Source: Amphibalanus amphitrite (lineage: Eukaryota; Arthropoda; Thecostraca; Balanomorpha; Balanidae). Taken from it: a stretch of DNA of 64,000 bases. A model generated the notes under the pieces. The model made no database searches. It was given only the letters and a program-made list of their open reading frames with translations, and was not told the origin of the DNA. The stretch is taken from assembly GCF_019059575.1 (NCBI RefSeq), contig NW_024881984.1, forward strand, positions 409,371-473,370, in the 5' to 3' direction. The position numbers were made by a program, and so were the translations under genes. Below are positions 6,900 through 34,259 of the stretch, piece after piece; within the stretch, counting starts at the first letter, position 1, and the number at the start of each line of letters is the position of its first letter.

Positions 6900-7032
6900 A
6901 TGGCGATCACGAAGGCGACTCGCCGGCCCTCTCAGAATCAGAGCCCCCGCACCAAGGGCAAGGGCAAGGGCAGTAACACAAGCAGCGGCAGCAGCGGAGG
7001 AAACCTCTACACACACTCCAGTCCGCCCAAAG
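6900..7032 (+). CDS. Ankyrin-kinase exon 1 (start codon, basic N-terminus)
   Basis: ATG at 6900 opens 44 codons rich in Lys, Ser, Gly and Thr (GKGKGKG-type, SSGSSGG), probably disordered. The donor GTGAGT follows at 7033, leaving one base (G) that joins TG of exon 2 to make Val. This ATG was chosen because it lies in a CpG-rich block downstream of the initiator-like TCAGT and keeps phase with exon 2. Confidence 0.7.

Positions 7033-34259: not shown

What the first reader, a model, noticed from the sequence alone, without database searches (positions are those of the whole stretch)
6900..34259. Arginine kinase fused to four hook/ankyrin modules
Seventeen exons with matching phases join ankyrin modules to a full arginine kinase domain in a protein of about 1,378 residues. 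Typical arginine kinases are ~350-residue free enzymes. Fusion to a repeat scaffold suggests a phosphagen kinase fixed at a site of high ATP use. I know of no characterised protein with this layout.
Basis: partly seen in the sequence, partly recalled or inferred. Interest (0 to 1): 0.82.

Follow-up and report, generated by a model that had tools for sequence, protein, structure and literature searches.

The report
Arginine kinase on an ankyrin scaffold
In a crustacean-like genome, one gene of about 17 exons appears to encode a long ankyrin-repeat scaffold ending in a complete, apparently active arginine kinase, an energy-buffering enzyme that is usually free-floating, so the protein may hold an ATP supply at one place in the cell.

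Summary
All 13 active-site residues checked are kept. The strongest evidence is a second copy of the locus, probably the other haplotype: 17 of 17 exons survive with splice sites (one GT donor is GC), with 106 synonymous against 10 nonsynonymous differences (dN/dS 0.03; AK domain 47:2; exons 10-16 53:2). Exon 17 has no start codon before the AK N-domain, and exon 16 has no constrained read-through end, so joining 16 to 17 is the best reading; no transcript could be checked. Exon 7 looks optional, and two intronic ORFs (12490-13581, 26203-27198) are candidate alternative 3' ends, so the AK form may be one isoform. The AK is 57% identical to the genome's two ordinary AKs, so it is no recent copy. 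Tethering for local ATP supply is plausible but untested. I rate it a new variant of a known kind.

The parts
6900..7032 (+). exon 1: start codon and basic low-complexity N-terminus (44 aa), phase 1 donor
   Evidence: codon score 0.42; identical in second copy so no selection test
10005..11856 (+). exons 2 (10005-10165, hook) and 3 (11656-11856, ankyrin): first half of module 1
12490..13581 (+). intronic ORF (363 aa, basic, no Pfam match), in frame with exon 3 from an acceptor-like site ending at 12489; candidate alternative 3' terminal exon
   Evidence: exon-like codon usage 0.63 against intron null mean -1.06, max -0.70; identical in second copy; no Pfam match
19929..20199 (+). exon 4: end of module 1 ankyrin plus linker
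20825..23510 (+). module 2: exons 5 (20825-21000, hook), 6 (21303-21428), 7 (22273-22338, doubtful), 8 (22756-22932), 9 (23298-23510, linker)
25197..25406 (+). exon 10: hook of module 3 (acceptor 25197, or 25203 or 25233)
   Evidence: 6 synonymous, 0 nonsynonymous
26203..27198 (+). intronic ORF (331 aa, acidic), in frame with exon 10 from an acceptor-like AG at 26201-26202; candidate alternative 3' terminal exon, AATAAA at 27560
   Evidence: frame kept in second copy, 26 synonymous and 35 nonsynonymous, dN/dS 0.38; codon score -0.35; AATAAA; no Pfam match at its cut-off
28197..29018 (+). module 3 ankyrin: exons 11 (28197-28418) and 12 (28908-29018)
29346..29768 (+). exon 13: end of module 3, Ser/Arg-rich linker, short hook of module 4
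   Evidence: 25 synonymous, 1 nonsynonymous; second copy has two extra codons in the linker
30081..31689 (+). module 4 ankyrin: exons 14 (30081-30225), 15 (31235-31392), 16 (31584-31689, phase 1 donor)
33022..34259 (+). exon 17: about 53-residue linker, complete arginine kinase domain (33183-34256), stop; AATAAA at 34458
   Evidence: AATAAA

Best explanation
The locus is a live gene whose longest product is a four-module hook/ankyrin scaffold carrying a catalytically competent arginine kinase at its C-terminus through a flexible Ser/Arg-rich linker. Shown: the open frame, the complete AK with its active-site residues, selection on both halves. Inferred: that exons 16 and 17 are spliced together; that the AK exon, which has no introns, entered as a retrocopied or intron-stripped AK captured as a 3' terminal exon long ago; and that the ankyrin surface binds a partner so the AK remakes ATP from phosphoarginine and ADP right there. 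If the intronic ORFs are alternative ends, the gene could make scaffold forms with or without the kinase. The partner and the cell type are unknown; a sperm axoneme or a membrane/cytoskeleton site are guesses by analogy.
For: Frame and phases. Second copy keeps 17 of 17 exons; dN/dS 0.012 for AK, 0.011 for exons 10-16, 0.34 for the exon 17 linker, as expected for a tether. AK nonsynonymous divergence (0.25%) is also far below that of intron 16 (5.8%). Exon 17 is open from 32985 with no ATG until the AK N-domain (first Met at 33321), and begins with a linker like those between modules. Read past its donor, exon 16 changes 7 of 57 residues between copies against 2 of 358 in AK, so it is not a constrained end. 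The exon 16 donor and exon 17 acceptor (8 and 10 nt shown) are the same in both copies; AATAAA follows AK. 13 of 13 AK residues kept. Of 37 scaffold matches in the genome 30 lie in the two copies; the other 7 are weak ankyrin matches, E 2e-5 or more (49 of 271 candidates scored).
Against: No RNA. Intron 16 holds one possible start exon (ATG 32070, 32100 or 32112, donor 32203, phase 1), kept in the second copy though with 3 nonsynonymous and 1 synonymous change (read by eye). Intron 16 differs by only 5.8% between copies, the least of the seven introns compared (others 6.5-23%), which could hide a promoter, although the sequence after the stop is as little diverged (0-6.7% in 150-nt bins). Intron 16 has six AATAAA/ATTAAA sites. 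Two other coding-like ends exist. Synonymous divergence in exon 17 (16%) exceeds that of its non-coding neighbours, so dN/dS may be somewhat understated. Nothing tests binding or location.
Confidence: 0.66

Rival explanations
1. Two neighbouring genes: an ankyrin gene ending at or after exon 16, and a separate long-diverged arginine kinase gene with its own first exon in intron 16.
For: One ATG-to-donor stretch of fitting phase in intron 16 (32070-32202), kept in the second copy; lower divergence of intron 16.
Against: That stretch shows 3 nonsynonymous to 1 synonymous change (read), against 47 synonymous to 2 nonsynonymous in AK; the exon 16 read-through end is unconstrained (7 of 57 residues changed); exon 17 starts with about 53 residues of linker of the same style as the inter-module linkers and the phases fit.
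Confidence: 0.18
2. One gene with several 3' ends: scaffold-only products ending in the 12490-13581 or 26203-27198 exons are the main forms, and the AK-bearing form is minor. (This does not exclude the best explanation; it changes which form matters.)
For: Both ORFs are in frame with the preceding exon (sequence), the first with exon-like codon usage, the second open in both copies with two one-codon indels.
Against: They may be nested genes; no transcript seen. Exons 10-16 and the AK domain are under stronger constraint than the second ORF (dN/dS about 0.01 against 0.38), which does not suit a negligible long form.
Confidence: 0.3
3. The AK domain is a dead or moonlighting kinase, used as a structural end cap.
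For: It is 56-60% identical to six solved single-domain AKs, against 72-88.5% for one of the genome's ordinary AKs (about 250 C-terminal columns).
Against: 13 of 13 active-site residues kept in both copies; AK dN/dS 0.012. The genome's degenerate copy on C89 lost 4 of the 8 tested positions in the piece compared and has a frame change.
Confidence: 0.08

Closest known systems
Arginine kinase (PF02807 + PF00217), single-domain free enzyme
   Same: full-length domain, 203 of 349 aligned residues identical to the solved AK 1bg0 (Limulus by recall), 13 of 13 checked residues kept
   Different: C-terminal part of a 1,378-residue predicted protein with ankyrin modules; intronless, while the ordinary AK on C1340 is split inside the domain (pieces 52-96 and 110-354 in separate exons) and on C427 only 110-354 was found in the 10 kb fetched. 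All 40 complete bacterial AK frames in my scan are 343-406 aa (8 more were cut)
Two-domain phosphagen kinases (4rf6 arginine kinase, 4wo8 taurocyamine kinase) and the sea urchin flagellar creatine kinase (three domains, recalled)
   Same: phosphagen kinase in a longer chain
   Different: those are kinase-kinase fusions; here one kinase domain with a non-kinase scaffold
Trypanosoma brucei AK3
   Same: AK aimed by an N-terminal addition, there to the flagellum (PMC4517888, abstract and passages)
   Different: an amino-terminal insertion; the word ankyrin occurs 0 times in its main text
Ankyrin-repeat scaffolds (ankyrin, espin, NOMPC chains in the PDB)
   Same: ankyrin repeats; best PDB match ankyrin 1.6e-49 over several stretches, 364 sequences at 0.001 (best 60 shown)
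   Different: short modules of a hook plus a few repeats with linkers, and the terminal kinase

Membership tests
Arginine kinase | both ATP:guanido phosphotransferase domains, full length | tested here: met
   PF02807 and PF00217 over cut-off; aligns with solved single-domain AKs nearly end to end (query 4-356 of 358 with 1bg0 6-355)
Arginine kinase | catalytic and substrate residues (S63-G66, Y68, R124, R126, E225, R229, C271, R280, R309, E314; list recalled) | tested here: met
   13 of 13 identical in both copies
Arginine kinase | phosphorylates arginine | not testable with these tools
   needs enzyme assay
Arginine kinase | free-standing enzyme of about 350 residues (usual, not strictly defining) | tested here: not met
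   by prediction: no start codon upstream of the domain in exon 17; frame joins scaffold
Two-domain or flagellar (multi-kinase) phosphagen kinases | two or three kinase domains in one chain | tested here: not met
   one PF00217 stretch in the 1378 aa
Ankyrin-repeat protein | ankyrin repeats over Pfam cut-off | tested here: met
   Ank_2 168 bits, 4 stretches
Scaffold-tethered kinase | scaffold and kinase in one mRNA | tested here: inconclusive
   frame, phase, linker and selection agree; no RNA

The most novel reading that the evidence does not exclude
A crustacean lineage fixed an arginine kinase onto a modular ankyrin scaffold long ago, making an addressable ATP-regenerating machine, with alternative 3' exons deciding whether a given scaffold carries the kinase.
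Probability: 0.3. Interest if true: 0.75.

Novelty: new variant of a known kind. Interest (0 to 1): 0.56.

Why it matters
Phosphagen kinases are thought to work as spatial ATP shuttles, mostly by diffusion or by short targeting signals (established view, recalled). A kinase built into a scaffold would let one ask directly whether local ATP remaking matters, by separating scaffold from kinase, and the scaffold's partner would name a process that needs its own ATP supply.

Tried and rejected
Rejected: recent retrocopy of the ordinary AK (56.6% identical to both of the genome's ordinary AKs, while one of these, C427, is 87.4-88.5% identical to 5zhq, 8yx0 and 4bg4). The tree has 3 of 11 inner branches well supported and a long fused branch, so its exact place is open. 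Rejected: degenerate AK. Rejected: exon 16 as the end of the gene. Led nowhere: viral-contig scan with the AK domain (22 pattern matches, 0 relatives); genome-contig scan gave 48 relatives of 112 pattern matches, all in records titled as bacteria, none fused in the 40 complete frames. Paper searches: none of the listed papers looks to be about an ankyrin-AK protein, judged from listings and, for PMC10224340 and PMC6429109, passages. I did not fold the protein: the spliced sequence is not letter-for-letter in the DNA, as the tool asks. Species not established: the ordinary AK is crustacean-like (crab, crayfish and shrimp sources of those PDB chains recalled) and the high allele divergence resembles that reported for a barnacle (PMC8270832, passages), which is only suggestive; none of the barnacle assembly sizes I saw equals 807.6 Mb.

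Full report
Check of the observation. I read the splice sites by eye from the sequence and joined 17 exons between 6900 and 34259. The result is an uninterrupted frame of 1,378 codons plus stop with consistent phases and 16 of 16 introns GT-AG (one search was a first attempt with exon 1 one base too long). Pfam finds Ank_2 in four stretches and both arginine kinase domains. Scanned ORF by ORF (10 ORFs) several ankyrin pieces stay below the cut-off, as expected of single exons.

Anatomy. Modules begin with a hook (of the kind WxxxGDLEKLExxxxDGxG in modules 1 and 3, varied in 2, shortened in 4), followed by ankyrin exons and a part with a YY or HY pair that runs into a linker. The boundary after the hook is phase 0 in 4 of 4 modules. 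Modules match one another (1 against 4: 2e-11). The profiles were built from these same modules, so they are no independent proof. The AK sits in one 1,238-nt exon: about 53 residues of linker, then the domain from 33183.

More than chance. The genome holding the window (807,550,619 bases, 2,644 contigs; window = C487:409371-473370) has a second copy of the locus on C1392. In the aligned blocks it is 99.6-99.8% identical up to about 23.7 kb and 83-94% identical beyond. All 17 exons are there. Exons 1-7 are identical and say nothing. Exons 8-17 differ by 106 synonymous and 10 nonsynonymous changes, plus an in-frame difference of two codons in the exon 13 linker. dN/dS: whole CDS 0.029, exons 10-16 0.011, AK 0.012, exon 17 linker 0.34. 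Exons 8, 9 and 16 have equal counts of both kinds (1:1, 2:2, 1:1), too few to judge. The exon 15 donor is GT in the window and GC on C1392. I call the copy a haplotype by inference; a recent duplication would serve the argument as well. Codon usage, scored with each exon left out of training, is above the intron null (mean -1.06, max -0.70) for 17 of 17 exons, lowest for exon 7 at -0.125; the null used 990-nt stretches, so it is not matched in length to the short exons.

Is the kinase joined to the scaffold? No RNA was available. For joining: exon 17 is open from 32985 and has no ATG before 33321, which lies inside the AK N-domain; its first residues are linker of the same style as between modules; exon 16 ends in phase 1 and exon 17 takes phase 1, as at the exon 4-5 border; the exon 16 donor and exon 17 acceptor are alike in both copies; the read-through of exon 16 changes 7 of 57 residues between copies, the AK domain 2 of 358; AATAAA follows the AK stop. 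Against: one possible start exon in intron 16 (32070-32202) survives in the second copy, with 1 synonymous and 3 nonsynonymous changes (read); intron 16 is 5.8% diverged where the six others compared are 6.5-23%, though the 3' flank is as little diverged; intron 16 holds six polyadenylation-like hexamers. Synonymous sites of exon 17 (16%) are more diverged than the non-coding sequence on either side; against intron 16 instead, AK nonsynonymous divergence (0.25%) is still more than twenty times lower.

Other ends. ORF 12490-13581 follows exon 3 in frame and uses codons like the exons (0.63); it is identical in the second copy, so selection cannot be tested. ORF 26203-27198 follows exon 10 in frame, stays open in the second copy with two one-codon indels and has dN/dS 0.38; an AATAAA lies at 27560. 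Neither has a Pfam match at a curated cut-off. They may be alternative 3' exons or nested genes.

The kinase. It aligns with solved AKs nearly from end to end (49 distinct PDB sequences of the wider family at 0.001), 203 of 349 aligned residues identical to 1bg0, and keeps 13 of 13 checked residues (residue list recalled). The genome has five PF00217 places: this locus and its second copy, two ordinary AKs (C427, C1340; 95% alike over the part compared), and a degenerate intronless copy with a frame change on C89. In C1340 the domain is split between exons; in C427 only its C-terminal exon was found in the 10 kb fetched; the first 51 residues were found for neither. The fused AK is 56.6% identical to the ordinary ones. 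In a small tree (15 rows, C-terminal part) it groups with the outgroups outside the crustacean AKs (96/95), but on a long branch, so I claim only that it is long diverged. Low present dN/dS with high divergence suggests an old, retained kinase.

How it most likely works. The ankyrin modules bind something; the flexible linker lets the AK sit beside it; phosphoarginine plus ADP gives ATP on the spot. Only the enzyme's completeness and the selection are shown; the rest is inference. Parallels: T. brucei AK3, aimed to the flagellum by an N-terminal insertion (PMC4517888, abstract and passages), and two AKs abundant in Culex sperm (PMC9934393, passages).

Known or new. My paper searches (open-licence papers only) showed no ankyrin-AK fusion. 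Two-domain AKs and taurocyamine kinases are known (PDB; titles). Protein databases could not be searched, so the layout may already exist as an unremarked database entry. I place it as a new variant of a known kind.

Noticed in passing
39907-41233 (+): A diverged relative of the hook/ankyrin module: ankyrin end at about 39931 (2e-21), hook at 40390 (3e-14), ankyrin start at 41126 (8e-6) (the hook and end of this copy were in the profiles, the start was not). Possibly a tandem sister gene.
   Followed up: partly
2926-3573 (+): C-terminal part of a FANCI-like gene (FANCI_S4, 4.7e-31) just upstream.
   Followed up: no
G000:C89:477299-478353: Intronless arginine kinase copy with a frame change and lost R124, R126, E225 and C271 equivalents; looks like a dead retrocopy.
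   Followed up: partly
22273-22338 (+): Exon 7 resembles the start of exon 8 (AA.LGH..IVE); it may be a duplicated or optional exon.
   Followed up: partly
about 23700 in the window against C1392:140592: The two copies switch from about 99.6% to about 83-94% identity per block, as if by recombination, assembly switching or a recent sweep.
   Followed up: no
56494-57456 (+): 320-aa acidic ORF without Pfam match; not compared with other genes.
   Followed up: no
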